64,000 bases of DNA from Lysobacteraceae bacterium (lineage in GTDB: Bacteria; Pseudomonadota; Gammaproteobacteria; Xanthomonadales; Rhodanobacteraceae), in the NCBI GenBank assembly GCA_028871555.1, contig JAGWNA010000005.1, positions 1 through 64,000 of the forward strand, written 5' to 3'. Each line of letters starts with the position of its first letter. Position 1 is the first letter of the stretch. A model generated the notes under the pieces. That model was given only the letters and a program-made list of their open reading frames with translations. It was not told the DNA's origin and made no database searches. The position numbers were made by a program, and so were the translations under genes. Shown in pieces: positions 10,821 through 54,350 of the stretch.

Positions 10821-11642
10821 TCAGCCCTTCACGCTGCCCAGCAGCAGCCCTTGCAGGTAATACCGCTGCAACGCCAGGAACAGCAGCAGCACCGGCAGCA
10901 CGGTGACCACCGAGCCGGCCATCATCAGTTCGCTGTCCTGCACGTGATCGCGCGCCAGCGAGGCCAGCGCCAGCGGCAGCGTGTAGTGTTCCTGTCCGGT
11001 CAGCACGATCAGCGGCCACATGAAGTCGTTCCATGCGGCGAGAAAGGTGAAGATCGCCAGCGTCGCCATGATCGGTTTCAGCAGCGGCAGCACGATCTGC
11101 CCGAAGATGCGCAGCTCGCCGGCGCCATCGATGCGCGCCGCCTCCAGCAATTCGTCCGGCACACTGCGGGCGTACTGGCGCACCAGATAGATGCCGAAGA
11201 TGGTGGCCATGCACGGCATGATCACGCCGGCATAGCTGTTCACCAGGCCAAAGGTCTTGAGCAGCAGGAACAGCGGCAGCATCGCCACCTGCGCCGGGAT
11301 CACCAGCGCCCCGATCAATGCCTGGAACAGCCGCTCGCGGCCGGTGAAGCGCAGCTTGGCGAACGCATAGCCGGCCAGCAGGTTGCTGGCCAGCGCCAGC
11401 GCGGTGATCGCGCTGGCGATCAGCAGGCTGTTGAGCAGGTAGCGTCCCATGCCGGCATGCGCGAACAGCTCGCGATAGTTGTCCAGCGTGGCATGCACGG
11501 GCAGCAGCGGTGGCGGCAATGAGCTGGCCTCGCCCGGCGCCATGAACGATACCGACAGCATCCACAGCAGCGGCAGCAGCGCGGCGGCCGCAAGGCCGCA
11601 CAGCGAACCATTGACCAGCACCTTGGCCAGCCGCGGATTCAT
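10821..11642 (-). CDS. Sugar ABC transporter permease, MalG/UgpE type
   Basis: 273 residues from the ATG at 11640-11642, which overlaps the stop of the upstream permease (ATGA). Six membrane segments are visible, and the cytoplasmic EAA loop, which contacts the ATPase, reads ELLEAARIDGAGELRIFGQIVLPLLKP. The family is CUT1 (oligosaccharide) permeases; it would be the second transmembrane half of the importer whose other half is the next gene. It is the last gene of the leftward carbohydrate operon. No ATPase gene follows; the UgpC-type ATPase at 24696-25787 is the likely energy subunit. Confidence 0.93.
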   Translation of the reverse strand: MNPRLAKVLVNGSLCGLAAAALLPLLWMLSVSFMAPGEASSLPPPLLPVHATLDNYRELFAHAGMGRYLLNSLLIASAITALALASNLLAGYAFAKLRFTGRERLFQALIGALVIPAQVAMLPLFLLLKTFGLVNSYAGVIMPCMATIFGIYLVRQYARSVPDELLEAARIDGAGELRIFGQIVLPLLKPIMATLAIFTFLAAWNDFMWPLIVLTGQEHYTLPLALASLARDHVQDSELMMAGSVVTVLPVLLLFLALQRYYLQGLLLGSVKG

Positions 11643-12532
11643 GTTCGCTCGCCTGCGGGATGTTCGTCGTGCCGTGCCAGCCGCAGCAGCAGCGTGGTCA
11701 CCGCAAAGATGATCGCGAACAGCATGAATGCCACGGCCGAGGCGGTACCGAGGTTCCACCATTTGAACCCGTCTTCGTACATCAGGTAGAGCACGCTGAC
11801 CGTGCTTTGCAGCGGGCCGCCCTCGGTCATCACGTAGGGCTCGGCAAACAGCTGGAAATAGCCGGCCACGGTCAGGATGGCCACCAGCGCCATGGTCGGC
11901 TTCAGCATCGGCAGCGTGATGTGCCAGAACTGTCGCGGCAGCGAGGCGCCATCGATGCGCGCGGCCTCGTACAGATCGAGCGGGATCGCCTGCAGCCCGG
12001 CCAGGATGATGATCATGTTGTAGCCGAAGTTCTTCCACACCGCGAACGCGATGATGGTCGGCATTGCCCAGCGCGGATCGCCGAGCCAGTCGATCGGATG
12101 GATGCCGATCTCCGCGAGGCCGTAATTGACCAGGCCGTACTTGGTGTTGAACAGGTAGCGCCAGATCACCGCCACGGCCACCACGGTGGTCACCACCGGA
12201 GCAAACAGCACGGTACGGAAAAACGGCCTGATCCGCGCCAGCGGCGAGTTGAGCAGCAGCGCGGCGACCAGCGACGTGGCGATCGACAGCGGCACGCCCA
12301 CCGCCACGAAGTAGAACGTGTTGCCCAGCGCCGACCAGAACAACGGCCGGTGCAGCAGCGCCCAGTAGTTGTGCAGGCCGACGAAGCGCAGGTTGCGGAT
12401 GTCCGCCAGCGCATACAGATCGTAGTCGGTCAGGCTCAGGCCCAGCGCGGCAATCACCGGCAGGATGAAGAACACCCCCAGCACCAGCAGTGCCGGGGCG
12501 AGGAACAGCCATGCCGTCCGCTGTCGGTTCAT
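11639..12532 (-). CDS. Sugar ABC transporter permease, MalF/UgpA type
   Basis: 297 residues from the ATG at 12530-12532, overlapping the stop of the binding-protein gene by 4 nt. Starts with the typical short cytoplasmic tail and first membrane helix (RTAWLFLAPALLVLGVFFILPV), followed by the loop DYDLYALADI and five more helices. The EAA motif is LYEAARIDGASLPRQFWHITLPML. It pairs with the MalG-like permease downstream to form a CUT1 channel. Short family version without the long MalF insertion. Tight 4-nt overlaps on both sides show strict co-translation with its partner subunits. Confidence 0.93.
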   Translation of the reverse strand: MNRQRTAWLFLAPALLVLGVFFILPVIAALGLSLTDYDLYALADIRNLRFVGLHNYWALLHRPLFWSALGNTFYFVAVGVPLSIATSLVAALLLNSPLARIRPFFRTVLFAPVVTTVVAVAVIWRYLFNTKYGLVNYGLAEIGIHPIDWLGDPRWAMPTIIAFAVWKNFGYNMIIILAGLQAIPLDLYEAARIDGASLPRQFWHITLPMLKPTMALVAILTVAGYFQLFAEPYVMTEGGPLQSTVSVLYLMYEDGFKWWNLGTASAVAFMLFAIIFAVTTLLLRLARHDEHPAGERT

Positions 12533-13848
12533 GGCTGCGGGCCGCGGTGGTGGTCGAGCATCCAGCGGCGCTTGGCGAGGATCGCGTCGGCTTGCCGGTC
12601 GATCTCGGCCGCGGCCTGGTCCACCGTCAATTCGCCATGCGCGGCGCGGGCGGCGACCAGTTGCATCGCGGTGACGATGCGTTCCCATTCGGGTACCGCC
12701 GGGGTCGGCCTGACCCGCTCCAGTTGTTCGCGAAACGCCTGCACCTGCGGGTCGCTGCGCAGCGTGCCGTCCTGCCAGGACGAACGGCGTGGCGGCATGT
12801 CGCCGACCAGCTCGTAGAACTTGCGCTGCACGGTCGGCTGCGACAGGTATTCGATCAGCTGCCACGCCTGCGCCTGGTGCCGCGAACGGCGGAAGAGCAC
12901 CAGGCTGGAACCGCTGGCAATGCCGGCGCCGGGACCGTCCGGACCGGGCAAGGGAGCGGTCGACCAGTCGCCCTGCTGCGCGGCCGGCAGACGCCGGCGA
13001 AATTCGCCGATGTTCCAGGGGCCGGACAGGTAGAACGCATACACGCCTCGGCCGACCTCGGCCCACGGATTGGGTACCTCGGTGTTGGCAAGCAACGGGG
13101 CCTCCTGTTGCCGGAATATGCCGACGTAGAAGGCCAGCGCCCGCTTGAAACCGGGGCTCTCGAAATTGCCGTAGCGTCCGCCGTCGCGCAGCAACGGCGC
13201 ATCCTGCTGCAACGCGAGCGAGAGCAACTGCTCGAATTCGTTGGTCGGCAGCAGGATCGGGTAACGACCCGGCGTGTCGCGAGTCTTCAGCGCCGCCATC
13301 TGCCGTGACCACTCGGTCCAGCTGCGCGGCGGCACGTCGAAGCCGGCCGCCTTGAGCAGATCCCTGCGGTAGAACAGCAGGCGGGTATCGACGTACCACG
13401 GTACTCCGTACAGGACACCGTCGATCCTGTTGGTGGCCCAGATGCCCGCGAAGTAGTCGTCCGGCCGTACCACGCTGGAGCGCGCGACATACGGCTGCAG
13501 CGGCTGCAGCGCGTGCAGCGCGGCCAGTTCGGCGATCCAGGTATTGCCCAGCTGGGCGATGTCCGGCGTGGTGTCGCCGGCGTAGGCGGTAAGCAGTTTC
13601 TGGTGGGCTTCCTTCCACGGCAGCTGCTGCAGTGTCACGTGGATGTCCGGATGGGCGTGCTCGAACCCGGGTATCAGCTGCGCCACCGCCTCGCCTTCGT
13701 TGCCCATCGCCCAGAACGTGAGCGTGCGCGTATCCGGGGCCTGCTGGCGGCAGGCGGACAGGCCGCCGCATGTGCCGGCCAGCAGCAACACCAGCCACCA
13801 GCGGTACGGCCGCGATGGCGTACATGCTGGCGGCCGAGGGCGCTTCAT
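12529..13848 (-). CDS. Sugar-binding lipoprotein of the ABC importer
   Basis: 439 residues from the ATG at 13846-13848. The N-terminus ends its hydrophobic stretch with GGLSAC, a lipobox with C33 as lipidation site, so it is probably an inner-membrane-anchored periplasmic protein. The body is a family 1 solute-binding protein: start of the mature domain TLTFWAMGNEGEAV, then TPDIAQLGNTW, GVPWYVDTRLLFYRRDLLK and WTEWSRQMAALK. A stretch of aromatic and charged residues (FYLSGPWNIGEFRRRLP) is typical of oligosaccharide binders. Its ATG overlaps the GH144-like gene stop by 4 nt, tying the importer to the glucanase, so the ligand is probably that enzyme's product; this last step is inference. Confidence 0.9.
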   Translation of the reverse strand: MKRPRPPACTPSRPYRWWLVLLLAGTCGGLSACRQQAPDTRTLTFWAMGNEGEAVAQLIPGFEHAHPDIHVTLQQLPWKEAHQKLLTAYAGDTTPDIAQLGNTWIAELAALHALQPLQPYVARSSVVRPDDYFAGIWATNRIDGVLYGVPWYVDTRLLFYRRDLLKAAGFDVPPRSWTEWSRQMAALKTRDTPGRYPILLPTNEFEQLLSLALQQDAPLLRDGGRYGNFESPGFKRALAFYVGIFRQQEAPLLANTEVPNPWAEVGRGVYAFYLSGPWNIGEFRRRLPAAQQGDWSTAPLPGPDGPGAGIASGSSLVLFRRSRHQAQAWQLIEYLSQPTVQRKFYELVGDMPPRRSSWQDGTLRSDPQVQAFREQLERVRPTPAVPEWERIVTAMQLVAARAAHGELTVDQAAAEIDRQADAILAKRRWMLDHHRGPQP

Positions 13849-15311
13849 GGCACCGGCACGGGCCGGGTCAGCCAGCCACCGGTGAAGCCGGCGCGCTGGA
13901 GTCCCTCGCGGATGTAGGGATTGCGTTTCATCACCTTCCAGACCAAATCGCTGCGCCAGTTTTCGATCATCAGCACGATCGGTCCCTGGTCGATGCCGAG
14001 CTGCTCGGTATCGACCCAGCCCATGCCCGGCACCAGTTTGCCGGTGCGCAGGGCGGTCTTCAGGTGGAAGCTGGGGTTGAACGCATCGACGAAGCCGTAG
14101 CGGTCGTAGATCCACTGGCCGTAACGGCGTTTCATCTGCATCAGCGCAGGCACCACGATCCGCGGTGCGAACGCGATCGAGCCGCCGGCCGCGGTGGGCG
14201 CGATGGTGCCGTCGTCGACGATATGGTCGAGGCCGGCGCCGCGCGCCGCGTAGCCGTCGAACTTGCGCTCGCCGGCGCCGCTGCCCACCACAAAGTTGCC
14301 GGGGCCGTTGCTGGCGGTCAGGCCCCAGATGTCCTTGCCGTAGCCGGTCCAGCGACCGGGATTGGCGATCGCGTAGTCGCGCTGGCTGCAGGTGGCGCGA
14401 CGGCTGTTCTCGAAATAGTCGAGGCCGTGCGCACGGCTCCAGGCATCGCGGATGCCGCGGAAATCGATCCACGCCTGGCTGTACTGGTGACCGAACAGCG
14501 GCGCGAAGTTGAGAAAGGTCCGGCCCTCGAATGTGCCCCAGCTGCGGTCATTGGTGGAGGTCCACGCCTTCCACGCACCGGCACTCACGGGATGGGTCGG
14601 CGAACCGAGCGCCAGCACGTAGATCAGCATGCCCTCGTTGTAGCCCTTCCAGTCGGCCGGGATGAACTTGCCGCCGGGTGTCCAGCCCATGCTGATCAGC
14701 GGTTTGTGCGGCTGCATCCAGGGCCAGTCGACGCGCCGGTAGATCGCATCGGCGAGCTGGCGGATCTCCTTTTCCTGCGGCGTGTCGCGGTCGTAGTAGG
14801 ACTCGGCGAACAGCACGCCGCCGAGCAGCAGCGTGGTGTCCACGCTGGACAGTTCGGTCCAGTGTCCCTCGCGCTTGCCGGTATGCATGTCCAGGAAATG
14901 GTAGAAGAAGCCGTGGAATCCGGCTGCATCGTCCTCGCTGCCGTTCTGCGGTGCGTCGTGGAAAAAGCGCAGGGTGGCCAGGGTGCGCCCGACTGCCTGC
15001 TGGCGGGTGATGTAGCCGCGTTCGACGCCGACGCCATAGGCGGTCAGCCCGAAGCCCACGGCGGCGATGCTGGAGAACGACGGGCCGGGATAGTGATCGG
15101 GCACCAGGCCGGTTTTCGGATCGGCGCTGTCCCAGAACCAGCGGAAGGTACGCCGCTCCAGGTCGTCGAGCATGGCCTGCTGCTGTCTGGGCAGTGCGGC
15201 GTAGCCGCTGGGCAATGGCCTCGCCGCTGCCGGCGAGGGCCAGCTCGCGCCGCCTGTCAGCAGCGCAATGCACAGACAGGCGGTCAGGGTCCGGAAATAG
15301 CGGCTGGTCAT
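13845..15311 (-). CDS. GH144-like glucanase (glycoamylase family, probable beta-1,2-glucanase)
   Basis: 488 residues from the ATG at 15309-15311. Signal peptide of about 30 residues (ending near AAARP), so exported. The mature protein belongs to the Pfam 'glycoamylase' family that defines GH144: LERRTFRWFWDSADPKTGLVPD at the start, then GFGLTAYGVGVERGYI, FYHFLDMHTGKR, ELSSVDTTLLLGG, WGLTASNGPGNF and SFHLKTALR. Characterised GH144 enzymes are endo-beta-1,2-glucanases or related exo-acting enzymes releasing sophoro-oligosaccharides; starch activity is not expected. It is followed by the sugar-binding lipoprotein (4-nt overlap) and preceded by the halogenase gene (97-bp gap). The presence of an NdvB-type synthase in the same window supports the beta-1,2-glucan assignment. 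Confidence 0.85.
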   Translation of the reverse strand: MTSRYFRTLTACLCIALLTGGASWPSPAAARPLPSGYAALPRQQQAMLDDLERRTFRWFWDSADPKTGLVPDHYPGPSFSSIAAVGFGLTAYGVGVERGYITRQQAVGRTLATLRFFHDAPQNGSEDDAAGFHGFFYHFLDMHTGKREGHWTELSSVDTTLLLGGVLFAESYYDRDTPQEKEIRQLADAIYRRVDWPWMQPHKPLISMGWTPGGKFIPADWKGYNEGMLIYVLALGSPTHPVSAGAWKAWTSTNDRSWGTFEGRTFLNFAPLFGHQYSQAWIDFRGIRDAWSRAHGLDYFENSRRATCSQRDYAIANPGRWTGYGKDIWGLTASNGPGNFVVGSGAGERKFDGYAARGAGLDHIVDDGTIAPTAAGGSIAFAPRIVVPALMQMKRRYGQWIYDRYGFVDAFNPSFHLKTALRTGKLVPGMGWVDTEQLGIDQGPIVLMIENWRSDLVWKVMKRNPYIREGLQRAGFTGGWLTRPVPVP

Positions 15312-15408
15312 CGTCGAGGTGTTCGGTCCGTTGTGGTTGAAGGCAATGCGATCGCCGGGTTGCCGGGTGCCGGCGCATGACGGCATGCATCCGGTTCGCG
15401 ACCGGGGA

Positions 15409-16923
15409 TCACGTTCCGGCGACGGCGCAGTGGCGATCGATGAACGCCTGATGCGGCGGCATCGCATCGACACAGCTTGCCACCACCTTGCCGACACCGG
15501 CGACGAATTGGTACAGGTCGCGGTCCGGCATTTGATCGACCAGTGGATGGTACGCACGCGGCATGATGCCTTGACCGATCATTACCTGGACCCAGCTGGT
15601 GGCCGCGAACATCTCCTCGGCATGGCGGAAGAAGCGGCCGCTGTCCCGGAACAGGCGGATGTTGTCCTCAAGCTGCTCCGGGATCGGCATCGTGCGGCAA
15701 TAGTTCCAGAACGGCGTGTCGTCGCGCTGGGTCGCGTGATAATGCAGGATCAGGAAATCGCGAATGCGCTCGAATTCGAAGGTCGACTGCGCGTTGTAGC
15801 GGTCGATCAATACCGGGCTGAAATCGCGTTGCGGAAACAGGTTGAGCAACTTGGCGATGCCCGACTGGATCAGATAGATGCTGGTCGATTCGAGCGGCTC
15901 CATGAAGCCGCTGGCCAGGCCCAGCGCGACCACGTTGCGGTTCCAGAATTTCCTGCGCATGCCGGTGGTGAAACGCAGCAGGCGCGGATCGCCCAGCGCG
16001 CGGCCGTCCAGATTTCCCAGCAGCGTGGCCGCCGCTTCATCGTCGCTGATATGCGCGCTGGAATACACATGGCCATTGCCGGTGCGGTGCTGCAGCGGTA
16101 TGCGCCACTGCCAGCCGGCGGCGCGGGCGGTGGCGCGGGTGTACGGCGTGGGCGGTCCGACCTTTTCGCAGGGCACGGCCAGCGCGCGATCGCACGGCAG
16201 CCAGTGGGTGAAATCGGTGTAGCCGGTATGCAGTGCCTGCTCGATCAGCAGGCCGCGGAAGCCGGAGCAGTCGATGAACAGATCGCCCTCGACCCTTTCG
16301 CCGCTTTCCAGGATCACCGCCTCGACGAAACCGTCGTGTGCGCGCAGCATGGTCTGTACGATCTTGCCTTCGGTGCGGATGACGCCGCGCCTTTCCGCGT
16401 AACTGCGCAGATAACGGGCGTAGAGGCCCGCGTCGAAATGATAGGCATAGGCGATATTCGCCAGTGGCGAGGTGGCCGGGACATCGCTGGCCGATGTCAT
16501 GAACTTGCCCAGCGGTGCGGCCACGGTATTCAGCGAGTAGGCGCCGATATCCGCAGCCTTGCCCGCCTGCGCCGCCTTGATCCAGTACTGGTGAAACGGC
16601 AGCAGCCCGAGGTCGTGGCCGATCGAGCCGAAGCCGTGGATGTAGGAGTCGCCGATCCGGCCCCAGTCGTTGAACTGGATGCCGAGCTTGAACGTGCTCC
16701 GGGTCTGCCGGATGAATTCGATCTCGTCGATTTCAAGCAGGTTGTTGAACAGCTTCAGATGCGGCACCGTGGCCTCGCCCACGCCGACCGTGCCGATCTC
16801 CTCCGATTCCACCAGCCGGATCGCATGGTGCGGATCGAGCACCTTGGCGAATGCGGCGGCGGCCATCCAGCCTGCGGTACCGCCGCCGACGATGACAATT
16901 TTCTTGATGCGTGAATCGGTCAT
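15409..16923 (-). CDS. Flavin-dependent halogenase, 'tryptophan halogenase' family
   Basis: 504 residues from the ATG at 16921-16923. FAD-binding [13 protein letters not shown] at residues 13-25; the catalytic lysine of this family falls at K79 in [12 protein letters not shown], the same position as in PrnA; the signature WxWxIP is present as GWQWRIPLQ; and the Glu segment is [11 protein letters not shown]. All key residues of a working halogenase are therefore there. The family makes hypohalous acid from reduced flavin, oxygen and halide and adds it to a substrate. It sits between the TonB receptor and the GH144-like glucanase, a setting repeatedly seen for this subgroup in Xanthomonadales and Caulobacterales. 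A free-tryptophan role is unproven; no flavin reductase gene is nearby. Confidence 0.88.
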
Positions 16924-17225: not shown

Positions 17226-20200
17226 CTAGAACTTCATGCCCACGGTGAGCCTGAGTTCGCGCGGCACGTAGGTGATATTGCCGTCGGTGTTGTAATGCAC
17301 GAAGTTCGAGTTCAGCACGCCGTTCGAGCCGAAGTTGTAGTTGAGGTCCGTGTAGTTCCTGAAGTTGAACGCGTTCAGGACGTCGAACCTGGCGTACATC
17401 TTGTAGCCGTGGCCGATGTCGAAATCCTTGGTCGCCTGGAAATCGACGTCGCGATAGCCGAAGAACTTGCCGCCGACCAGGAACCTTCCATTGCCCGGCG
17501 GCGTGCCGGCGATCGGGGTGCAGCCGCTGCCGTTGGGGAAGGTGGCGCCGTAACAGGCGATGGCATTGCCCGGAATCGGCGTGGCCAGGGTCACCTTGGC
17601 CGACAGCGTAATGCCCCACGGCACATCGATCACGCCGGTAGCGACCAGGCGGTGCCTGGCGGCGGCGTTCGAGGTGATGAACGGGTAGTTGCCGATCGTG
17701 GCTTCGTCGAACGAGTAATGCTCGTTGATGTCCCGGTTCTGCCTGGCCTTGGTATAGGTATAGGCGATCGTGACGCCCCAGCCGGACTCCTTCGTGTACG
17801 GCTTTTCAGCCGACAGCAGTACCTGGGTAGTGCGCGTTTCGATGCCGTTGTTGCCGACGATCAGTGCGCCGAAGCCCGGTACGCCGTTGCCCCAGGGCTG
17901 GCTGTTGTTCTTGAAGAACGCACCGTCGGGATAACGGTTGCCCAGGGTGAACACGAAGCCGTTGTAGCTGAGGATCCTGGCGATCGTGGCATTGGTGTTC
18001 CAGTCGCCGATCTTGTTGGACATGCCGAAACTGAATTGGTCCGAATACGGCACCTTCAGGTTGTTGTTGAGGATATCCACTTCCTGGCCGGCGTTGCTCG
18101 AGGCGAGCAGCGCCTGCAGGTTGCCCAGGCCGTTGAGGAAGTTCGGATCCCAGTTGACGCAGTTGGCATTGGCGGTGTCGCAGGTACGCGAGGAATTGTT
18201 GAAGAAGATGGTCTGCTCGGGCAGCGACGACTTGGTGATCTCCAGCTGCATGAAGTCGTACAGGTTGCGGTCGTAGGCGCGGCCGGCGCCGCCGTGGAAG
18301 ACGTGCCGCTCGTCGCCGTTCATGTCGTACGAGAAACCCAGCCGGGGTTGCCATTCGTCCTTGTTGGCCTTGCGGTTGTGGCCGTTGCTGATGTAGTCGT
18401 TGATGTTGATGCCGCCCTTGGCCAGCGTCTGGGCATAGGTCTGCCCGGCCGGCGCGTTCGGGTCCTGGCCGTTGAATGCCGCGATCACGTTGGCCGGCGT
18501 GACGTAATCGAGGTAGGCGGGCAATCTCTCGTAATCCCAGCGCACGCCGAGGTTCAGGGTTAGCTTGTCGTTGACCGCCCAATCGTCCTGCAGGTAGGCG
18601 CCGAACTGGTAATCCTTGGTGACCACCTTGGGACTCAAGCCCGCGACCGGATTGGGAAAGAACACCTTGTACGGAATCGCCGAGGTACCGCTGGGGTTCA
18701 CGTCGTAATAGAACTGGGCGTTGGTATCGCCGGCGTCCTGCGCATTGAGGGTGATCTTCTTGTACTTGGCGCCGAGCTTCACCACGTGCTCGCCGTGCCA
18801 GTCCAGATCGTTGAAGGTCAGGTCATCCTGCAGTGCCGGGCCGGTCTGGCCCTTGCGCTGGGTGGCCAGGGGCGAGGCCGCGCCGGTAATCAGCACGGTG
18901 GCGTCGTGGTTGGGCTGGTAGGTATAGACCGCGCCGTTGCCGAACCCCAGCGAGGTCGGGTTGTTGTAGGCCGCCTCGTGGGTAAACAACAGCTCGTTGA
19001 AGTAGATCTCGCCACTATGCTGCCAGCGCAGCGAATAGCGCTCGTCGTTGTTGATCACGTCGATGCCGGCGGCGCGGGCGGTGACGCCCCCGATGTTGTC
19101 GAACTGGCCCTCCTTGCGAACCTGGCCGCTCAACTCGAAGCGGTCGCGATCGGTCGGCTCCCAGTCGATCTTGGCGAAGCCGAGTTTTTCCGTGAAGGGC
19201 AGACCCGCAGGGCCGGCCTGAGCCGCCACGCTGGGCGGCAGCAAGGCGGCGATGCCGGGAACCGGGCTGCCCAGGGTGACCGTGGTCGGGGTGTCGAACA
19301 GTTTCCGCTCGTAGGTGGCGAAGAAGTGCAGCTTGTCCTTGATGATCGGGCCGCCGATCGCGAAGCCGAATTCCTTTTCGTGCGATCCGGTCTTCCGGTG
19401 CGCATTGTCCTCGGCAGGCGTAGCCGCGCGCAGGTGGTCGTTGGTATAGGTGTCGAATACCTCGCCGTGGAATTCGTTGGTGCCCGATTTGGTTTCCGCC
19501 GTGACCGCGGCGCTGGAGATCTGGTCGAACTCGGCCTTGTAGTTCGAGGTGATCACCTTGTACTGGCCGATGGCCAGCTGCGGGAACGGGTTGCCCTGGC
19601 TGGCGAACTGGCCGCTGACCCCGCCTTCCTTGACGTAGCTCTTCTGTCCGACGCCGTCGATGTAAACGTTTACAGAACTGTTGTTCTGAGCCCCGCCCCG
19701 CAGCGAAGTGTGCCCGTTCGCATCGAGGCTGAAGACCACGCCGGGCACGGTGTCGGCGAATTCCAGGAAATTGCGCGAAACCTGGGGAATCGTCTCGATC
19801 TGGTGCTGCGAGATGGTGGTGGCGATTTCGGACGTCTTGACCTCCGTCAGCGTCGTGGCCGTGACGCTGACGCCGGCGAGCGTCGTGGTCGGGCCTGCCG
19901 GCGCCGCGCCGGCGGCGCCAAGGTTGAGGGTGGCGGTGGATGCGACCGTCAGCGTCACCACCTTCTGCGTGCCCGGACCGGCGTCGATGCGGTAGGTGCC
20001 CGGTTGCAGCCCGACCAGGCCGTAGCTGCCGTCCGCCGCCGTGGTGGTGCGGCGGACCACGCCGGTGGCGATATTGGTGGCGGTGATCGTGGTGCTCGGC
20101 GGACCCTTGCCGCGCACGATCGCGGTGGCTGTCTGCGCCCACAGGTTCGCCGGCGTGCCGGCAATGCCGATCACGGAAGTGGCGACAAGGCTCGCAAGCA

Positions 20201-20231
20201 AATTTTTCTTGAAATGCAAAGGCGTTCTCAT
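17226..20231 (-). CDS. TonB-dependent receptor with carboxypeptidase-regulatory-like domain
   Basis: 1001 residues from the ATG at 20229-20231, with a GGGAGAG ribosome site. Signal peptide about 32 residues (to LWAQ). An N-terminal beta-sandwich regulatory domain follows (TTITATNIATGVVRRTTTAADGSYGLVGLQPGTYRI, of the Oar/CarboxypepD_reg type), then a plug with TVPGVVFSLDANGHTSLRGG and SSVNVYIDGVG, and a barrel ending in Phe (VGMKF), the usual outer-membrane assembly signal. It takes up large substrates with energy from TonB; in this locus a glucan or glucan fragment is likely. It follows lacI by 41 bp. A perfect 14-bp LacI-type palindrome lies inside its plug-coding part. Confidence 0.93.
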   Translation of the reverse strand: MRTPLHFKKNLLASLVATSVIGIAGTPANLWAQTATAIVRGKGPPSTTITATNIATGVVRRTTTAADGSYGLVGLQPGTYRIDAGPGTQKVVTLTVASTATLNLGAAGAAPAGPTTTLAGVSVTATTLTEVKTSEIATTISQHQIETIPQVSRNFLEFADTVPGVVFSLDANGHTSLRGGAQNNSSVNVYIDGVGQKSYVKEGGVSGQFASQGNPFPQLAIGQYKVITSNYKAEFDQISSAAVTAETKSGTNEFHGEVFDTYTNDHLRAATPAEDNAHRKTGSHEKEFGFAIGGPIIKDKLHFFATYERKLFDTPTTVTLGSPVPGIAALLPPSVAAQAGPAGLPFTEKLGFAKIDWEPTDRDRFELSGQVRKEGQFDNIGGVTARAAGIDVINNDERYSLRWQHSGEIYFNELLFTHEAAYNNPTSLGFGNGAVYTYQPNHDATVLITGAASPLATQRKGQTGPALQDDLTFNDLDWHGEHVVKLGAKYKKITLNAQDAGDTNAQFYYDVNPSGTSAIPYKVFFPNPVAGLSPKVVTKDYQFGAYLQDDWAVNDKLTLNLGVRWDYERLPAYLDYVTPANVIAAFNGQDPNAPAGQTYAQTLAKGGININDYISNGHNRKANKDEWQPRLGFSYDMNGDERHVFHGGAGRAYDRNLYDFMQLEITKSSLPEQTIFFNNSSRTCDTANANCVNWDPNFLNGLGNLQALLASSNAGQEVDILNNNLKVPYSDQFSFGMSNKIGDWNTNATIARILSYNGFVFTLGNRYPDGAFFKNNSQPWGNGVPGFGALIVGNNGIETRTTQVLLSAEKPYTKESGWGVTIAYTYTKARQNRDINEHYSFDEATIGNYPFITSNAAARHRLVATGVIDVPWGITLSAKVTLATPIPGNAIACYGATFPNGSGCTPIAGTPPGNGRFLVGGKFFGYRDVDFQATKDFDIGHGYKMYARFDVLNAFNFRNYTDLNYNFGSNGVLNSNFVHYNTDGNITYVPRELRLTVGMKF
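19661..19674. promoter_or_regulatory. Perfect 14-bp LacI-type palindrome inside the receptor gene
   Basis: TGTAAACGTTTACA, a full palindrome, about 560 nt downstream of the receptor start codon. It spans the codons for the conserved segment SVNVY, written with TCT, GTA and GTT, which are unusual choices in this GC-rich genome. It matches the site at 24590-24603 except for two central bases. It may be an intragenic operator; binding is not shown. Confidence 0.5.
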
Positions 20232-20272
20232 GGTTACTCTCCCCGGTCAACTTTTTGGATGGTTGAATTGCA

Positions 20273-21298
20273 TCAGCCTTGAGGCGGTCGAGCTTCGTGT
20301 TTCGCGCCGCACGATTCGCGGACGACGACTTCGCAGCCGAGCGTGTGCACGGATGCCGGTGCCGGGTCCGCTTTGTCGAGTTGCGCGACCAGTTGCTCCA
20401 GCGCGAGCCGGCCCAGATCCACGATGCGTACCCGTACCGTGCTCAGCGGCGGGGTGACGTAGCGTGCGACCGGAATGTCATCGAAACCGGCCAGCGCGAT
20501 GTCCTGCGGGACATGCAGTCCCGCCTCCTTGAATGCGGTCAGGCAGCCCACCGCCATCATGTCGTTCGCGGCGAACACGGCACGCGGGCGCGTCTCCTGT
20601 GCCAGCAGTTCGCGCCCGGCGCGGTAACCCGATTCCTCGGTGAAGTCGCCCGCGACGATATGGATCGGTGCGCTCGGTGCGCGGCTCGCCATCGCCGCGC
20701 GGTAACCCTCTTCGCGCTGCTGCGCATCGAAGTTGCTTGCCGGACCTGCAATGAAGGCCACGCTGGAATGGCCGGCAGCGAGCAGGTGCTGCACCATCGC
20801 GCTGGCGCCAGCGAAGTTGTCGACGTTGAGCACGGTATAGGCCTTGCTCTTCACGGCGCTGTTGATCAGCACGACAGGCAGGGCCTTGGGCAAGTTGGCG
20901 CGAAGGAATGCCGCGTCGACCCGCGCCGACAGGATCAGCAGGCCGTCGACGCGACCCTGCATCGAGCGCACGGCCGCCGCCGCTTCCTGGGCGCCGTCGT
21001 GCGAGCTGGATACCAGCAGGTGGAAACCGCGCGCACGCGCGGCCAGATCGATGCCGCGGATCAACTCGGAAAAGAACTCGCCGTACAGATCCGGCAGCAG
21101 TGCGCCGATGGTATTGCTGCGTCGGGTGATCAGCATGCGCGCGGCTGCATGCGGGATGTATTGCAGGCGGCTGGCGGCCGCGTGGATGCGCTCACTGGTT
21201 TCGGCGGTCACCCCGCTGCCGCCATTCATGGCGCGCGATACCGAGGCTACGGAAACCTTGGCCTCGCGAGCTACATCTTTGATCGTTGCTGCCGACAT
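20273..21298 (-). CDS. LacI-family transcriptional regulator
   Basis: 341 residues from the ATG at 21296-21298. N-terminal helix-turn-helix TIKDVAREAKVSVASVSRAM (residues 5-24), hinge region with YIPHAAARMLITRRSNTIG, then a periplasmic-binding-protein-like sensor domain (GALLPDLYGEFFSELIRGID; FAANDMMAVGCL; ALAGFDDIPVARYVTPPLSTV). It lies 41 bp upstream of and in the same direction as the TonB receptor, so it is probably co-transcribed with it. It presumably represses the locus until a glucan-derived sugar binds. Palindromic sites at 21342-21355, 19661-19674 and 24590-24603 are candidate operators, the first just upstream of its own gene (autoregulation). Confidence 0.93.
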   Translation of the reverse strand: MSAATIKDVAREAKVSVASVSRAMNGGSGVTAETSERIHAAASRLQYIPHAAARMLITRRSNTIGALLPDLYGEFFSELIRGIDLAARARGFHLLVSSSHDGAQEAAAAVRSMQGRVDGLLILSARVDAAFLRANLPKALPVVLINSAVKSKAYTVLNVDNFAGASAMVQHLLAAGHSSVAFIAGPASNFDAQQREEGYRAAMASRAPSAPIHIVAGDFTEESGYRAGRELLAQETRPRAVFAANDMMAVGCLTAFKEAGLHVPQDIALAGFDDIPVARYVTPPLSTVRVRIVDLGRLALEQLVAQLDKADPAPASVHTLGCEVVVRESCGAKHEARPPQG

Positions 21299-21695
21299 AG
21301 GAGTAGGGACCGGAGATTCTGAAACCCTGATGTGGCAGCAACGTAATCGTTTTCATGAGGGTTTGTAAAGCACTGGTAAACCAGGGATATGCTGCGTCGC
21401 AAAATGGTTTTGCATGCTCGTCGTGAGATCTGTATGGAATTCGTCGCGGACACGGTGTTACGGCAATCAGGGCAGACCGGACGACGCTGTGGCAGCGCAG
21501 CAACGAACGCAAAGCCAGACCGTGGCGATGGGTGGCCAAGCTGCAGGAATTGCGAACCTTGCCGCATTCTTGCGCATTGCATGGAAGGTCATTTTATCGT
21601 TAAATCGGGGTTAATATTAGCGGACTCAAGCGGCTGTACCCTTTATCTGTCGATGCAGACGAACAAAACATAGGCAAGTCATTGTATTTACGATC
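21299..21695. other. Regulatory intergenic region between lacI and the SPFH gene
   Basis: 397 bp, more AT-rich than its surroundings. Read leftward, a possible lacI promoter (TTTACC or TTTACA near 21366-21380) overlaps the operator-like site 21342-21355. A further small dyad, CTGGTAAACCAG, lies near 21375. The right part must hold the promoter of the SPFH gene; TTAATATTAG at 21611-21620 is a possible -10 region. No convincing small gene: the open frames of 66-94 codons here lack ribosome sites and recognisable products. Confidence 0.5.
21342..21355. promoter_or_regulatory. Operator-like site upstream of lacI
   Basis: CGTAATCGTTTTCA matches the reverse complement of the site at 24590-24603 (TGTAATCGTTTACA) at 12 of 14 positions. 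It lies about 45-60 nt upstream of the lacI start codon, as expected for autoregulation. Confidence 0.5.
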
Positions 21696-22154
21696 ATGTT
21701 GATCCTCCTGACATTACCCTTGGTCTTTTCCGCCGTTTTGATGGCCAGTGCGATCAGGCGCGTGCCGGTCGGTCAGGTGTACAGTCTTTACCGGCACGGC
21801 AAAATGGCAAGGTTGCTGCAGCCGGGCATTCACCTGGTGCTGCCGCTGCGCGACCGGGTGGTGCACAAGATCGACTTGGCTGGCCAGACGCTGCGCTTTG
21901 AGGAGCCTTGTGCCGACGCCGGCGACATGCGCGGTACGGTGTACTGGCAGGTACTGGAGCCGGAGCGTGCCGATGCGGTGTTCGAGCAGGTGGATCAGCT
22001 GATCCGGCGCGGTGCCCAGGAGGCATTGCAGGTCGAGTCCGGCGCCGACCCCGGCAATCGTCGCGATCTGGGCAGGCGCCTCAAACTATCCTTGAACAAC
22101 GCGCTGCGTGAGCGCGGGATGATGGTGACCCGGGTCGAGCTCGACAACGTCTGA
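21696..22154 (+). CDS. Short SPFH/band-7-like membrane protein
   Basis: 152 residues from the ATG at 21696. One N-terminal membrane segment (MLILLTLPLVFSAVLMASAI), then the start of an SPFH/prohibitin domain: RRVPVGQVYSLYRHGKMARLLQPGIHLVLPLRDRVVHKIDLAGQTL. The end (LKLSLNNALRERGMMVTRVELDNV) matches the place where slipins and stomatins continue into their coiled coil, so this is about 100 residues shorter than a usual slipin and lacks the oligomerisation part. There is no frameshifted continuation downstream: a terminator hairpin follows at 22232. Such proteins sit in membrane microdomains; the role here is unknown. It lies just upstream of rsmG. Confidence 0.7.
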   Translation: MLILLTLPLVFSAVLMASAIRRVPVGQVYSLYRHGKMARLLQPGIHLVLPLRDRVVHKIDLAGQTLRFEEPCADAGDMRGTVYWQVLEPERADAVFEQVDQLIRRGAQEALQVESGADPGNRRDLGRRLKLSLNNALRERGMMVTRVELDNV

Positions 22155-22231
22155 ATCAGGGATCGAACCATCACGAATCGCGCCAGGGCGACCCAGAGCG
22201 CCCGCGCCACAGGGGATTTGAGAGTCTTGCG

Positions 22232-22254
22232 ACCCGCTTCGGCGGGTTTTCTTT
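22232..22254 (+). terminator. Rho-independent terminator after the SPFH gene
   Basis: Stem ACCCGC (22232-22237) and GCGGGT (22242-22247) with a TTCG loop, followed by TTTCTTT. It lies 78 bp past the SPFH stop and about 100 bp before rsmG, so rsmG needs its own promoter. Confidence 0.8.
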
Positions 22255-22352
22255 ATGGTGCGCCCGGCAGGGCGCATCCACTCGGATGCCGCTGGCATCG
22301 TGATCGTCCGTCCCGGATACTGCCGCATCCCGATCACCACACCGGAAACGTC

Positions 22353-22982
22353 ATGACCGCGCGTGCCGCCTTGCAGGCCCGACTGGAACGAGGCATCGCC
22401 GGACTGGGCCTGACCTTGCCGGCCGAAGCGGTGCCAAGGTTGCTCGACTACCAGGCATTGCTGGAGCGCTGGAACGCCGCCTACAACCTCACCGCGGTCC
22501 GCGATGCCGCGGAAATGATCACTCGGCACCTGCTCGATTCGCTGGCGATCCTGCCTCACGTGCAGGGCGCCACGCTGGCCGATCTGGGCACCGGCCCGGG
22601 CTTGCCGGGCATTCCATTGGCGATCGCGGTGCCCGGGCGGGAAATCCTGCTGGTCGATTCCAACGGCAAGAAGGTGCGTTTCCTGCGCGAGGCGATCCGT
22701 GCCCTCAAGCTCGACGGCGTGCGTGCCGTGCAGTCGCGTGTCGAGGACGTGCAGGGCCAGTTCGACTGCATCACCGCGCGCGCGTTCGCCAGCCTCGCCG
22801 ACATGCTCGCTTGGGGTGGCCATCTGCTGGCACCGGGCGGCGTCTGGCTGGCGATGAAAGGCAAGCTGCCGGACGACGAATTGCCGGGCATCCCGCCCGG
22901 CTTCGAAGTGCGCGCCGTGCATGCGCTGACGGTGCCGGAGTTGCCGGCCGAGCGCCATCTGCTGGTGCTGGCGCGCGCCTGA
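22353..22982 (+). CDS. rsmG: 16S rRNA (guanine(527)-N(7))-methyltransferase
   Basis: 209 residues from the ATG at 22353, normal family length. Family signature in order: YQALLERWNAAYNLTAVRD near residues 30-50, the SAM-binding loop LADLGTGPGLPGIPLAI near 75-90, VDSNGKKVRFLREAIRALKL near 105-124, and TARAFASLADML. It methylates G527 in the 530 loop of 16S rRNA; loss gives low-level streptomycin resistance in other bacteria. In many bacteria rsmG is followed directly by parA-parB near the origin. Here REP elements, a beta-glucosidase and an ABC ATPase lie between rsmG and parA. Confidence 0.97.
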   Translation: MTARAALQARLERGIAGLGLTLPAEAVPRLLDYQALLERWNAAYNLTAVRDAAEMITRHLLDSLAILPHVQGATLADLGTGPGLPGIPLAIAVPGREILLVDSNGKKVRFLREAIRALKLDGVRAVQSRVEDVQGQFDCITARAFASLADMLAWGGHLLAPGGVWLAMKGKLPDDELPGIPPGFEVRAVHALTVPELPAERHLLVLARA

Positions 22983-23019
22983 GGCCCGTCGCTGCCATGT
23001 GTGTGCGCGTGTGTGTGCG

Positions 23020-23114
23020 TAGGAGCCCACCGTGTGGGCGAATGCTCTTCGCCGGCACCCCGACAAGGGCATCGCGCACAGGGTGTGCTCCTACCGGCGT
23101 CGTGCAATCCGTCC
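23020..23114. repeat. Single copy of the valS-array palindromic unit
   Basis: One ~95-bp unit closely similar to those at 9310-9792 (TAGGAGCCCACCGTGTGGGC... GCGCACAGGGTGTGCTCC... CGTGCAATCCGTC), with a few point differences. Its substitutions in both arms weaken pairing slightly. It abuts a REP doublet of a second subfamily at 23116. Confidence 0.92.
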
Positions 23115-23115
23115 G

Positions 23116-23193
23116 GAACCCGCTCGCGGGCGATGCTCTTGGTTTTCGAAGCAGCTGGATTCAGAGCAGGAGCATCGCCCGCGAGCGGGCTCC
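23116..23193. repeat. REP doublet, GAACCCGCTCGCGGGCGATGC subfamily
   Basis: Left half GAACCCGCTCGCGGGCGATGC and inverted right half GCATCGCCCGCGAGCGGGCTC, separated by about 35 bp. Related doublets occur at 27691-27773 and 39908-39985. It lies between the convergent rsmG and GH1 genes and ends 8 bp from the GH1 stop. Confidence 0.9.
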
Positions 23194-23201
23194 ACACACA
23201 C

Positions 23202-24560
23202 CTATAGCGTGTCCAGCGCGCTGCCGTTGCTGGCGATCACCTGCGCATACAGCTTCGCGCTGGCCTTGGGCGTGCGCTGCTGGGTGGTGAAGTCGACGTG
23301 GTACAGCCCGAAACGCTTGGAGAAACCCAGCGACCATTCCAGGTTGTCCATCAGCGACCAGGCATAGTAACCCTTCAGGTTCACCCCCGCCGCGATCGCG
23401 TGGTGCAGTGCCTGCAGGTGCTTGCGCAGATAGTCCGTGCGCAACGGATCGCTGAGCACGGCCTCTTCGGACACCGGCGGATCATAGAAGGCCGAACCGT
23501 TTTCGGTGACGTACAGTGGAATGTCCCCGTAGCGCGCCCTGAACCAGAGCAGCGTTTCGGTCAGGCCCTGTTCGAAGACTTCCCAGCCGGTCTCGGTATG
23601 GGTCCGGTTGGCTTGGTGCACCGGCACGGCCTTCAGCGGATACGCGTCCGGGTCGTGCCTGACCACTGCGCGGGTGTAGTAGTTGATGCCGACGAAATCG
23701 ACCTCCTGCCGGGTCAGCGCGAAGTCGTCGGCGGGGAAATCCGGCCACGCATCGCCGAAGATTTCCCTCAGTTCCGGCGGATAGCTGCCGAGCAGCGCCG
23801 GGTCGGCGAACTGCAGATTCATGTAGGCATGCGCGCGGCCGGTGGCGGCGAGATCCTCGGCGCTGTCCGAGGCCGGGTACTTGGGCTCGATGTTGAACAC
23901 CACGCCGATCTCGTGCTTGCCGTGCGCGCGATAGGCCTGGATGCCGGCGCCGCTGGCACGCATCAGGTTGTGCGCGGCGATCGGCGCTTCGAACTTGTTG
24001 CGATGTCCTGGCGCCAGGACCCCGTGCAGATAGCCGCCATCGGTGACCACCCACGGCTCGTTGAGGGTGGACCAGCGCGGCACCCGGTCGTCCAGTGCCT
24101 TGAACATCACCTCGGCGTACTCGGCGAACCAGTACGCGCTGTCGCGGTTGAGCCAGCCGCCGCGGTCGTCGAGTGCGGCCGGCAGATCCCAATGGAACAG
24201 CGTCGCGTTCGGCACGATGCCGTTTTCAAGCAGCTCGTCGACCAGCCGCGAATAGAAATCCAGTCCCTTCGGGTTGACCGGCCCGATGCCCTCGGGCAGC
24301 ACGCGCGCCCAGTTGATGCTGAAGCGGTATCCCTGCAAGCCCAGCGCGCGCATCAATTGCACGTCATCCTTGTAGCGCCGGTAGTGATCGCAGGCGACAT
24401 CACCGGTATCGCCGTTGGCCATCATGCCCGGCGTATGCGCGAAGCGTTGCCAGATGCTCGGGCCGGCCCCGTCGGCGAGCGGGGAGCCTTCGATCTGATA
24501 GGCCGAGGTGGCGGCGCCCCAGTGGAAGCCATCGGGAAAGCGGTAACTGCTGCCGGTCAT
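23202..24560 (-). CDS. Family GH1 beta-glucosidase
   Basis: 452 residues from the ATG at 24558-24560, with a strong AAGGAG ribosome site. No signal peptide, so cytosolic. GH1 N-terminal signature FHWGAATSAYQIEG (residues 12-25); acid/base Glu E168 in STLNEPWVV; nucleophile Glu E353 in LYVTENGSAFYDPP; C-terminal substrate loop NLEWSLGFSKRFGLYHVDF. Retaining beta-glycosidase, most likely splitting short beta-glucosides to glucose. The operator-like palindrome at 24590-24603 lies 30 bp upstream, so it is probably under the same LacI regulator as the leftward locus and would finish breakdown of imported oligosaccharides. It is divergent from the UgpC-type ATPase gene. Confidence 0.95.
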   Translation of the reverse strand: MTGSSYRFPDGFHWGAATSAYQIEGSPLADGAGPSIWQRFAHTPGMMANGDTGDVACDHYRRYKDDVQLMRALGLQGYRFSINWARVLPEGIGPVNPKGLDFYSRLVDELLENGIVPNATLFHWDLPAALDDRGGWLNRDSAYWFAEYAEVMFKALDDRVPRWSTLNEPWVVTDGGYLHGVLAPGHRNKFEAPIAAHNLMRASGAGIQAYRAHGKHEIGVVFNIEPKYPASDSAEDLAATGRAHAYMNLQFADPALLGSYPPELREIFGDAWPDFPADDFALTRQEVDFVGINYYTRAVVRHDPDAYPLKAVPVHQANRTHTETGWEVFEQGLTETLLWFRARYGDIPLYVTENGSAFYDPPVSEEAVLSDPLRTDYLRKHLQALHHAIAAGVNLKGYYAWSLMDNLEWSLGFSKRFGLYHVDFTTQQRTPKASAKLYAQVIASNGSALDTL

Positions 24561-24589
24561 GGGGCTCCTTGGCGATTCAACGGGCTTGC

Positions 24590-24603
24590 TGTAAACGATT
24601 ACA
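24590..24603. promoter_or_regulatory. LacI-type operator between GH1 and the ABC ATPase gene
   Basis: TGTAAACGATTACA, palindromic except for the two central base pairs. It sits in the 135-bp divergent spacer, 30 bp from the GH1 start and about 92 bp from the ATPase start, so one repressor could control both. Similar 14-bp sites are at 19661 and 21342. Confidence 0.7.
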
Positions 24604-24695
24604 CAGGCAGAATAACCGAACCCTCCGCCGATGTGCACACAGGCGCATGCTTGAAGGGAGTCCGGCCGCCCTGGCCAAACGTACCGGAGATGCCG

Positions 24696-25787
24696 ATGGC
24701 AACCGTCAGTCTGGACCAGCTGCGCAAGGTCTATCCGAATGGCAATGTGGGCGTGGCCGGAGCCAGCTTCGATATCGCCGACGGCGAGTTGCTGGTGCTG
24801 GTTGGCCCTTCCGGTTGCGGCAAGACCACCTTGCTGCGGATGATCGCAGGGCTGGAAACGATCAGCGGCGGCACGCTGAGCATCGACGGCCGCGTGGTCA
24901 ACGAAGTTGCGCCGAAAGATCGCGACATCGCGATGGTGTTCCAGAACTACGCGCTGTATCCGCACATGACGGTGGCCGAGAACCTGGGCTTCGGCCTGCG
25001 CCTGCGCGGGCACAAGCCGGCGGACATCAAGCAACGCGTCGCCCGTGCGGCCAGAACGCTGGAGCTGGAACAGCGGCTGACCTCGCGTCCGGCCGCCCTG
25101 TCCGGCGGCCAGCGCCAGCGCGTGGCGCTGGGGCGTGCGCTGGTACGCGATCCGAAGGTGTTCCTGCTGGATGAGCCGCTGTCCAATCTGGACGCCAAGC
25201 TGCGGCTGTCGATGCGGGTGGAAATCGCGCGCCTGCACCGCCAACTCAAGGCCACCATGATCTATGTCACGCACGACCAGATCGAGGCGATGACGCTGGG
25301 CCAGCGCATCGTGGTGCTCGATGGCGGAGTGATCCAGCAGATCGACTCGCCGATGAACCTGTACGACCGCCCGGCCAACCTGTTCGTCGCCGGCTTCATC
25401 GGCAGTCCGGCGATGAATCTGCTGCATGGGAAGCTGCGGATCGAGCATGGCTGGAAATTCGCCACGGCGCACGGTGACATCGAATTGGGCGAGCCGCCGC
25501 AAGCCGCGACGTGGCAGGCGTGGTGCGGGCGTGACGTGGTGCTGGGTATCCGCCCGGAAGACCTGCAGCCGCAGGATGCCGGGCCGGCGGCCCTCAGCGC
25601 CCGGCTGGAAGTGCCCGAACCGGTCGGCAACGAGATCTTTCTGAACCTGCGCCTTGGAGGGCAGGCGCTGGTGGCGCGGGTTTCACCACGCGCCCTGCCG
25701 GAGCCGGGCAGTACCGTGGCATTGGGGCTGGCGCTGGGGCGGCTGCATCTGTTCGACGCGCAAAACGGCATGCGCATCGACGCCTGA
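24696..25787 (+). CDS. Sugar ABC transporter ATPase, UgpC/MalK type
   Basis: 363 residues from the ATG at 24696 (MATVSLDQL); an ATG six bases earlier is an alternative. Walker A GPSGCGKTT near residue 37, Q-loop VFQNYALYPHMTV, signature LSGGQRQRVALGRALVRDP near 135, Walker B VFLLDEPLSNLD, switch THDQIEAMTL, then the OB-fold regulatory domain of MalK/UgpC proteins (VVLGIRPEDLQP). It powers CUT1 sugar importers. No permease gene is next to it; the permeases at 10821-12532 lack an ATPase and probably use this one. In related bacteria one such ATPase can serve several importers. Divergent from GH1, with a shared operator-like site. Confidence 0.93.
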   Translation: MATVSLDQLRKVYPNGNVGVAGASFDIADGELLVLVGPSGCGKTTLLRMIAGLETISGGTLSIDGRVVNEVAPKDRDIAMVFQNYALYPHMTVAENLGFGLRLRGHKPADIKQRVARAARTLELEQRLTSRPAALSGGQRQRVALGRALVRDPKVFLLDEPLSNLDAKLRLSMRVEIARLHRQLKATMIYVTHDQIEAMTLGQRIVVLDGGVIQQIDSPMNLYDRPANLFVAGFIGSPAMNLLHGKLRIEHGWKFATAHGDIELGEPPQAATWQAWCGRDVVLGIRPEDLQPQDAGPAALSARLEVPEPVGNEIFLNLRLGGQALVARVSPRALPEPGSTVALGLALGRLHLFDAQNGMRIDA

Positions 25788-54163: not shown

Positions 54164-54350
54164 ATCCAGCCTTCCTTTACGGGTCGATCGCGATCCGGCC
54201 GCATGCGGGTCCATGCACGGCCATCGGCCCGGAGTGGCGGCCGTGGCGATTGGCAAAGCCCGCTGGCACTGCTTTGACGTTACGCGATACCGTGTGAAGA
54301 CAACGCAGGGTACGATGCTTGCCCATCGACTTTCCTGCCGGAGTTGCCCT

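What the first reader, a model, noticed from the sequence alone, without database searches (positions are those of the whole stretch)
10821..25787. A split LacI/TonB/GH144/ABC/GH1 locus for beta-1,2-glucan use
Seen: lacI, TonB receptor, halogenase, GH144-like enzyme, lipoprotein and two permeases run leftward, with 4-nt overlaps from the GH144 gene through the last permease. A cytosolic GH1 enzyme and the missing ABC ATPase lie 2-4 kb upstream of lacI, with a shared 14-bp motif. Known: GH144 enzymes act on beta-1,2-glucan. Inferred: the locus takes up and breaks down beta-1,2-glucan or sophoro-oligosaccharides, combining outer-membrane TonB and inner-membrane ABC steps.
Basis: partly seen in the sequence, partly recalled or inferred. 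Interest (0 to 1): 0.75.

Follow-up and report, generated by a model that had tools for sequence, protein, structure and literature searches.

The report
Beta-1,2-glucan uptake and breakdown locus
A bacterium carries a co-regulated gene set that very probably cuts beta-1,2-glucan (a bacterial sugar polymer) outside the inner membrane, imports the pieces and turns them into glucose; the set recurs in related bacteria, and it suggests that a solved protein structure is named after the wrong sugar.

Summary
lacI, TonB receptor, halogenase, GH144, lipoprotein and two permeases run leftward, with exact 4-nt overlaps from GH144 through the last permease; GH1 and the ABC ATPase form a divergent pair upstream of lacI. 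The best solved relative of the GH144 protein is XcSGL (XCC2207, 8XUL), a measured beta-1,2-glucanase, and the catalytic residues are kept. New evidence ties the split locus together: among 80 related loci the GH1/ATPase pair sits upstream of lacI in some and behind the permeases in others, and one LacI-type operator (TGTAAACGNTTACA) lies before lacI (62 of 64) and GH1 (38 of 43), against at most 2 and 1 for shuffled motifs. The lipoprotein is closest to 3UOR ("MalE" of X. citri), then to Lin1841, a beta-1,2-gluco-oligosaccharide binder; 3UOR and Lin1841 are reciprocal best hits, and in Xanthomonas-like genomes the 3UOR-like gene follows the XcSGL-like gene, so "MalE" is probably misnamed. A full-length cyclic beta-1,2-glucan synthase lies 30 kb away, so salvage of the cell's own glucan rivals scavenging. 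No protein here is assayed. The parts are known; I did not find the assembled regulon described in the papers searched.

The parts
10821..11642 (-). ABC transporter permease 2 (BPD_transp_1)
11639..12532 (-). ABC transporter permease 1 (BPD_transp_1); 4-nt overlap with permease 2
12529..13848 (-). Solute-binding protein with an LSAC lipobox-like N-terminus; nearest solved relatives 3UOR and Lin1841; 4-nt overlap with permease 1
13845..15311 (-). GH144 beta-1,2-glucanase-like enzyme (488 aa, signal-peptide-like N-terminus by inspection); 4-nt overlap with SBP
15409..16923 (-). Tryptophan-halogenase-family protein; accessory (35 of 80 related loci)
17226..20231 (-). TonB-dependent receptor; CarboxypepD_reg-like N-terminus (30.9 bits, just under the Pfam cut-off of 32.3)
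19661..19674 (.). Exact operator-like palindrome TGTAAACGTTTACA inside the TBDR gene
20273..21298 (-). LacI-family regulator
21342..21355 (-). Operator-like site TGAAAACGATTACG in front of lacI
   Evidence: conserved position in relatives
23202..24560 (-). GH1 beta-glucosidase without signal peptide by inspection (TIGR03356 above cut-off)
24590..24603 (.). Operator-like site TGTAAACGATTACA between the divergent GH1 and ATPase genes
   Evidence: conserved position in relatives
24690..25787 (+). UgpC/MalK-type ABC ATPase (NF008653 above cut-off; start could also be 24696)
45527..54475 (-). Full-length cyclic beta-1,2-glucan synthase (NdvB/Cgs type; GH94 and PF10091 domains), possible source of the substrate

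Best explanation
This is a LacI-controlled beta-1,2-glucan / sophoro-oligosaccharide utilisation regulon. Proposed order of events: the TonB receptor takes beta-1,2-glucan or larger fragments through the outer membrane; the exported GH144 enzyme cuts them to sophoro-oligosaccharides; the lipoprotein SBP captures these; two permeases and the UgpC/MalK-type ATPase import them; the cytosolic GH1 beta-glucosidase releases glucose. LacI represses two transcription units from a shared operator: lacI-TBDR-halogenase-GH144-SBP-permeases, and the divergent GH1/ATPase pair. Shown here: gene order, family membership, catalytic residues, conserved neighbourhood, conserved operator. Inferred: activity of this GH144 and GH1, ligand of this SBP, receptor cargo, LacI binding and inducer, place of cutting (periplasm or outside).
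For: GH144: best solved match XcSGL/XCC2207 (E 2e-178), which hydrolyses beta-1,2-glucan (PMC12102758, abstract and passages); E226 (= XcSGL E239), F273 (F286), Y354 (Y367) and D158 kept in 80 of 80 loci. SBP: 3UOR 520 bits, Lin1841 208, next 122; Lin1841 is a Sop3-5-binding subunit (PMC12369401). Of 80 loci: TBDR 71, SBP 70, permeases 67 and 66, lacI 65, GH1 44, ATPase 40 (contig-end truncation not corrected). Operator before lacI in 62 of 64 and before GH1 in 38 of 43 usable windows, versus SBP 0 of 70, permeases 0 of 67 and 0 of 66, halogenase 0 of 34, TBDR 3 of 66, GH144 6 of 80; 60 column-shuffled motifs reached at most 2 (lacI) and 1 (GH1). A pathway of Lin1841-like SBP, ABC permeases and a sophoro-oligosaccharide GH1 is proposed for S. 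griseus, with the GH1 assayed (PMC12369401). A cyclic beta-1,2-glucan synthase lies in the same window; across 398 genomes both genes 109, GH144 only 93, synthase only 21, neither 175.
Against: No assay of any protein here. The GH1 was not shown to prefer beta-1,2 links: SGR_2426 (8KAP/9U98) is not among the 60 best of 174 solved GH1 hits and its subsite residues were not compared, so a broad beta-glucosidase is possible. 5 of 43 GH1 windows lack the operator (all 4 loci with unpaired GH1 and L067) and 2 of 64 lacI windows lack it. 10 of 80 loci have no SBP match; some are cut contigs, but the Spirosoma loci, L056 and L075 have GH144 with none of the other eight genes in view. After Lin1841 the next relatives of 3UOR are acarbose/maltose-binding GacH chains (127 bits), and for the window SBP 4QRZ, listed with maltooligosaccharides. 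Receptor and halogenase roles rest on neighbourhood alone. Co-occurrence with the synthase is not corrected for phylogeny.
Confidence: 0.88

Rival explanations
1. Self-glucan salvage: the locus chiefly recovers the organism's own cyclic beta-1,2-glucan made by the synthase at 45527-54475 (same chemistry as the best explanation, different source of the substrate).
For: Full-length NdvB/Cgs-type synthase in the same window; the 22 sampled genomes of the own genus all have both GH144 and synthase; in 6 same-genus genomes that I read off the two listings a GH144 copy and the synthase share a contig 26-67 kb apart, as here. No OpgG/MdoG match in the own assembly, so that other route to beta-1,2-glucan was not seen.
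Against: 93 of 202 GH144 genomes have no synthase match at E 1e-60, so the enzyme often exists without own cyclic glucan. Other genomes have the genes on different contigs (G105, G169, G259, G303) or megabases apart (G095, another genus). A TonB receptor suits an external substrate.
Confidence: 0.3
2. General beta-glucoside locus: GH144-like enzyme and GH1 act on mixed beta-glucans or glucosides, with beta-1,2 only one of several linkages.
For: Family GH1 is broad (established knowledge); the nearest solved GH1 relatives are named only beta-glucosidases.
Against: GH144 is nearest to a beta-1,2-glucanase and the SBP groups with a beta-1,2-gluco-oligosaccharide binder.
Confidence: 0.08
3. Starch/maltose locus, as the Pfam name 'Putative glucoamylase' for PF10091 and the name MalE for the SBP relative would suggest.
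For: Pfam name; [quoted passage not shown] the ATPase is of the UgpC/MalK type; GacH and other maltose binders come next after Lin1841 in the 3UOR search.
Against: Nearest characterised enzyme is a beta-1,2-glucanase; with Lin1841 as query 3UOR scores 223 bits, other maltose-type binders up to about 112 and maltose/maltodextrin-binding periplasmic proteins about 63; 3UOR's ligand is given as 'Unknown' or apo in the two papers seen.
Confidence: 0.02

Closest known systems
XcSGL (XCC2207) of Xanthomonas campestris and its neighbourhood
   Same: Same GH144 subgroup. In 5 unnamed Xanthomonas-like stretches (SBP 92-96% identical to 3UOR) the order lacI-TBDR-GH144-SBP-permease-permease recurs, the TBDR found in 4 of 5.
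   Different: No match to the GH1, ATPase or halogenase of the window within the 19.5 kb read in those 5; the enzyme is characterised, the locus was not found described.
Listeria innocua lin1839-1841 cluster (GH94 phosphorylase, GH3, Lin1841 SBP)
   Same: Related SBP; import of sophoro-oligosaccharides by ABC transport.
   Different: Gram-positive; phosphorylase and GH3 instead of GH144 and GH1; no outer-membrane receptor (PMC12369401, introduction; lack of receptor is inference from the Gram-positive envelope).
Streptomyces griseus SGR_2422-2427
   Same: Lin1841-like SBP, ABC permeases and a GH1 enzyme active on sophoro-oligosaccharides.
   Different: GH193 glucanase instead of GH144; no outer-membrane step (PMC12369401, introduction and first part of the discussion).
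Xanthomonas TonB-receptor carbohydrate loci (sux type)
   Same: LacI/GalR-type repressor, TonB receptor, inner-membrane transporter and enzyme.
   Different: sux uses a major-facilitator transporter and sucrose; here ABC import and probably beta-1,2-glucan (PMC1790865, passages).

Membership tests
GH144 | Sequence similarity to characterised GH144 enzymes (XcSGL, CpSGL, BDI_3064) | tested here: met
   phmmer E 2e-178 to 8XUL, 8e-48 to 5GZK, 3e-49 to 5Z06
GH144 | General acid Glu and clan-defining Phe and Tyr (XcSGL E239, F286, Y367), plus an acidic residue at the proposed base position | tested here: met
   E226, F273, Y354, D158; 80 of 80 loci agree. XcSGL numbers were placed by hand on the alignment (offset 14); D158 by alignment position
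GH144 | Hydrolysis of beta-1,2-glucan | not testable with these tools
   needs an enzyme assay
Lin1841-type sophoro-oligosaccharide-binding protein | Closer to Lin1841 than to maltose-binding proteins | tested here: met
   window SBP: 3UOR 520 bits, Lin1841 208, next 122; 3UOR and Lin1841 are each other's best non-self hit among solved chains, 227/223 bits, next 127/143
Lin1841-type sophoro-oligosaccharide-binding protein | Ligand-contact residues of the Lin1841 complex kept | not tested
   the paper with the contacts is not held
LacI-family regulon | LacI HTH and sugar-binding domain, and a shared palindromic operator at the controlled promoters | tested here: met
   binding itself not shown
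TonB-dependent carbohydrate-utilisation locus | TonB receptor next to degradative enzyme, inner-membrane transporter and regulator | tested here: met
SGR_2426-type sophoro-oligosaccharide-specific GH1 | Gln229/Trp291/Met171 subsite +1 residues | not tested
   SGR_2426 sequence was not obtained; only general GH1 beta-glucosidase membership shown
Cyclic beta-1,2-glucan synthase (NdvB/Cgs) | Near full-length match to solved Cgs/NdvB, including cyclising and GH94 parts | tested here: met
   8RF0 2048 bits over residues 175-2949 of 2982; 8WY1 410 bits

The most novel reading that the evidence does not exclude
A beta-1,2-glucan import regulon widespread in the order Xanthomonadales salvages and removes the bacteria's own cyclic beta-1,2-glucans; the crystallised 'MalE' (3UOR) is its binding protein and not a maltose binder; and an operator inside the receptor gene gives a looped repression complex in some members.
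Probability: 0.2. Interest if true: 0.62.

Novelty: new variant of a known kind. Interest (0 to 1): 0.45.

Why it matters
It turns an isolated characterised enzyme (XcSGL) into a complete, regulated uptake pathway whose GH144 gene is found in 202 of 398 sampled genomes of the order, gives a testable ligand for a solved structure filed as maltose-binding, and places synthesis and breakdown of beta-1,2-glucan, a polymer tied to plant interaction, in one genomic neighbourhood.

Tried and rejected
Maltose/starch reading: rejected on the SBP and GH144 relatives, though maltose-type binders come next after Lin1841. OpgG-made glucan as own substrate: no MdoG match in the own assembly of 91% completeness. 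Ten frames in gaps or flanks of related loci as substrate clues: four had no Pfam match; the rest were a Na/H exchanger, a peptidase S9/esterase-like protein, an F5/8-type domain protein with a sub-threshold rhamnosidase match, a MacB/FtsX permease, a group II intron reverse transcriptase and an alcohol dehydrogenase; no common clue. Of the four operator-like places outside the locus, two were looked at: one lies about 70 bp before a GH39 gene; around the other, four of five frames had no Pfam match and one is kynureninase-like; the two on C23 were not looked at. None was taken as a regulon member. Structure prediction was not used, since solved relatives are close.
Full report
What is there. 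Searches place nine genes: permease 2 (10821-11642), permease 1 (11639-12532), SBP (12529-13848), GH144 (13845-15311), halogenase (15409-16923), TBDR (17226-20231), lacI (20273-21298) and GH1 (23202-24560) on the minus strand, and the ATPase (24690-25787) on the plus strand. The three 4-nt overlaps are exact. Pfam and NCBIfam assign the families: GH1 passes the TIGR03356 cut-off and the ATPase the UgpC-subfamily cut-off. GH144 and SBP have signal-peptide-like N-termini, the SBP with an LSAC lipobox-like stretch; GH1 has none (by inspection and a hydropathy window, not by a signal-peptide predictor).

GH144. The best solved match is 8XUL, XCC2207 = XcSGL (E 2e-178), far ahead of 4GL3 (E 4e-59) and of the characterised 5Z06 and 5GZK (E 3e-49 and 8e-48). 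In PMC12102758 (outline, abstract and passages seen) XcSGL hydrolyses beta-1,2-glucan, and E239, F286 and Y367 define the clan. The window protein has E226, F273 and Y354 there, and D158 at the position that I align with the proposed base; all four are kept in 80 of 80 loci, which were chosen by similarity to this protein. The second PF10091 match in the genome lies in the synthase described below.

SBP. phmmer gives 3UOR (520 bits), Lin1841 (208) and then 4QRZ (122). With the 3UOR segment as query the best non-self chain is Lin1841 (227 bits), followed by acarbose/maltose-binding GacH chains (127); with Lin1841 it is 3UOR (223 bits; next 143; other maltose-type binders up to about 112; maltose/maltodextrin-binding periplasmic proteins about 63). 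Lin1841 is called a binding subunit for Sop3-5 in PMC12369401 (introduction and first part of the discussion read). [quoted passage not shown] its own paper is not held. I infer that 3UOR is a sophoro-oligosaccharide-binding protein. Contact residues were not compared.

The split locus is one system. A search of named genomes gave 80 loci with the GH144 gene (546 places encoded a relative, the best 80 were kept). Of these 80, at 40% identity or more except for the TBDR (any match): TBDR 71, SBP 70, permease 1 67, permease 2 66, lacI 65, GH1 44, ATPase 40, halogenase 35. Loci cut by contig ends were not dropped, and the 10-kb flank barely reaches the GH1/ATPase pair in the arrangement seen here, so these counts are low estimates. 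The Spirosoma loci, L056 and L075 have GH144 with none of the other eight genes in view. My reading of the listing: of the 44 loci with GH1, 9 have it upstream of lacI as here (8 with the ATPase in view), 20 have ATPase (-) then GH1 (+) behind permease 2, 11 have GH1 (-) then ATPase (+) behind permease 2, and 4 have GH1 unpaired (L061, L073, L076, L077). In all 39 loci with a neighbouring pair the two genes are divergent. The pair moves as a cassette and stays near the operon. In the 18 further stretches that I chose from 202 positive genomes, lacI, GH144, SBP and both permeases are present in 18 of 18 and the TBDR in 16 of 18; a match to the window's GH1 and ATPase appears in 1 of 18 (L120).

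The operator. TGTAAACGNTTACA with at most 2 mismatches lies within -260/+20 of lacI in 62 of 65 loci, of GH1 in 39 of 44 and of TBDR in 3 of 71; the 80 loci plus nothing else hold 147 such places in 1.57 Mb, or 0.026 per 280 bases, true sites included. After dropping windows that run off the contig: lacI 62 of 64, GH1 38 of 43, TBDR 3 of 66, halogenase 0 of 34, GH144 6 of 80, SBP 0 of 70, permease 1 0 of 67, permease 2 0 of 66. Sixty column-shuffled motifs gave a mean of 0.13 and a maximum of 2 for lacI, and a mean of 0.05 and a maximum of 1 for GH1. The five GH1 windows without it are the four unpaired ones and L067. In the own assembly 7 places match, 3 of them here, including the only two exact ones; the 13 strand matches in all are not above the 11 of the control pattern, so weak matches elsewhere may be chance. 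The GH1 operator occurs in all three arrangements of the pair, so it travels with the cassette. Of the 18 extra stretches, 17 hold at least one site within 1 mismatch; L112 holds none; several Xanthomonas-like ones also have one before GH144. The natural reading is that LacI controls two transcription units through this operator.

A third, exact palindrome lies inside the TBDR gene (19661-19674), over a conserved VNVYI stretch. Of 66 receptors alignable there, 6 carry it exactly (4) or with one mismatch (2); those two receptors are only 36-37% identical to the window's, and the others mostly use different codons. This could be an auxiliary operator; it is sporadic and untested, and codon chance was not modelled.

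A source of substrate in the same window. The 2982-aa frame at 45527-54475 matches cyclic beta-1,2-glucan synthase NdvB/Cgs over residues 175-2949 (2048 bits) and the cyclising domain of TiCGS, with GH94 domains. Across 398 genomes of the order, GH144 occurs in 202 and the synthase, at E 1e-60, in 130; both in 109, GH144 only 93, synthase only 21, neither 175 (odds ratio 9.8, not corrected for phylogeny). The 22 sampled genomes of the own genus have both. In six of them a listed GH144 copy and the synthase share a contig at 26-67 kb (G348, G340, G164, G115, G242, G388); in others they are on different contigs (G105, G169, G259, G303), and in another genus megabases apart (G095). The one search list is cut and many of these genomes have two or three GH144 matches, so this is not a full count. 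Own-glucan salvage and scavenging are both open.

Weak points. No protein here has been assayed. The GH1 was not shown to prefer beta-1,2 links. The halogenase has no explained role; 45 of 80 loci gave no match to it, among them 14 of the 15 loci titled Dyella. Receptor cargo is inferred from position. [quoted passage not shown] the window's receptor likewise has no separate plug match in Pfam at E 0.001.

Novelty. Searches for XCC2207, GH144 with Xanthomonas, GH144 with TonB-dependent or Rhodanobacter, neighbouring locus tags, and sophorose with Xanthomonas and TonB-dependent listed the enzyme and related clusters; I saw no description of this regulon in those listings and in the passages read. 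Searches around MalE/3UOR listed no paper that I saw reassigning its ligand. The library is open-licence PMC only, and the supplement of PMC12102758, which has a note on XcSGL, was not read, so earlier description is possible. I rate it a new variant of a known kind: known parts in a Gram-negative version of the Listeria and Streptomyces sophoro-oligosaccharide pathways.

Noticed in passing
45527-54475 (-): Full-length cyclic beta-1,2-glucan synthase (NdvB/Cgs type) about 30 kb from the GH144 locus.
   Followed up: yes
19661-19674: Exact copy of the operator palindrome inside the TonB-receptor gene; seen with at most one mismatch at the same place in 6 of 66 related receptors.
   Followed up: partly
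15409-16923 (-): Tryptophan-halogenase-family gene between receptor and GH144, matched in 35 of 80 related loci and in 1 of 15 loci titled Dyella; role unexplained.
   Followed up: partly
9308-9793: Five tandem copies of a 96-bp hairpin-forming, REP-like unit (valS-like and pirin-like genes on either side by inspection only), with related sequence near 23023-23087.
   Followed up: partly
23115-23193: 27-nt inverted repeat, 93% complementary, just downstream of the GH1 gene; terminator or repeat element not decided.
   Followed up: no
L104:5534 (G000:C44:79533): One-mismatch operator-like site about 70 bp before a GH39 gene elsewhere in the genome.
   Followed up: partly
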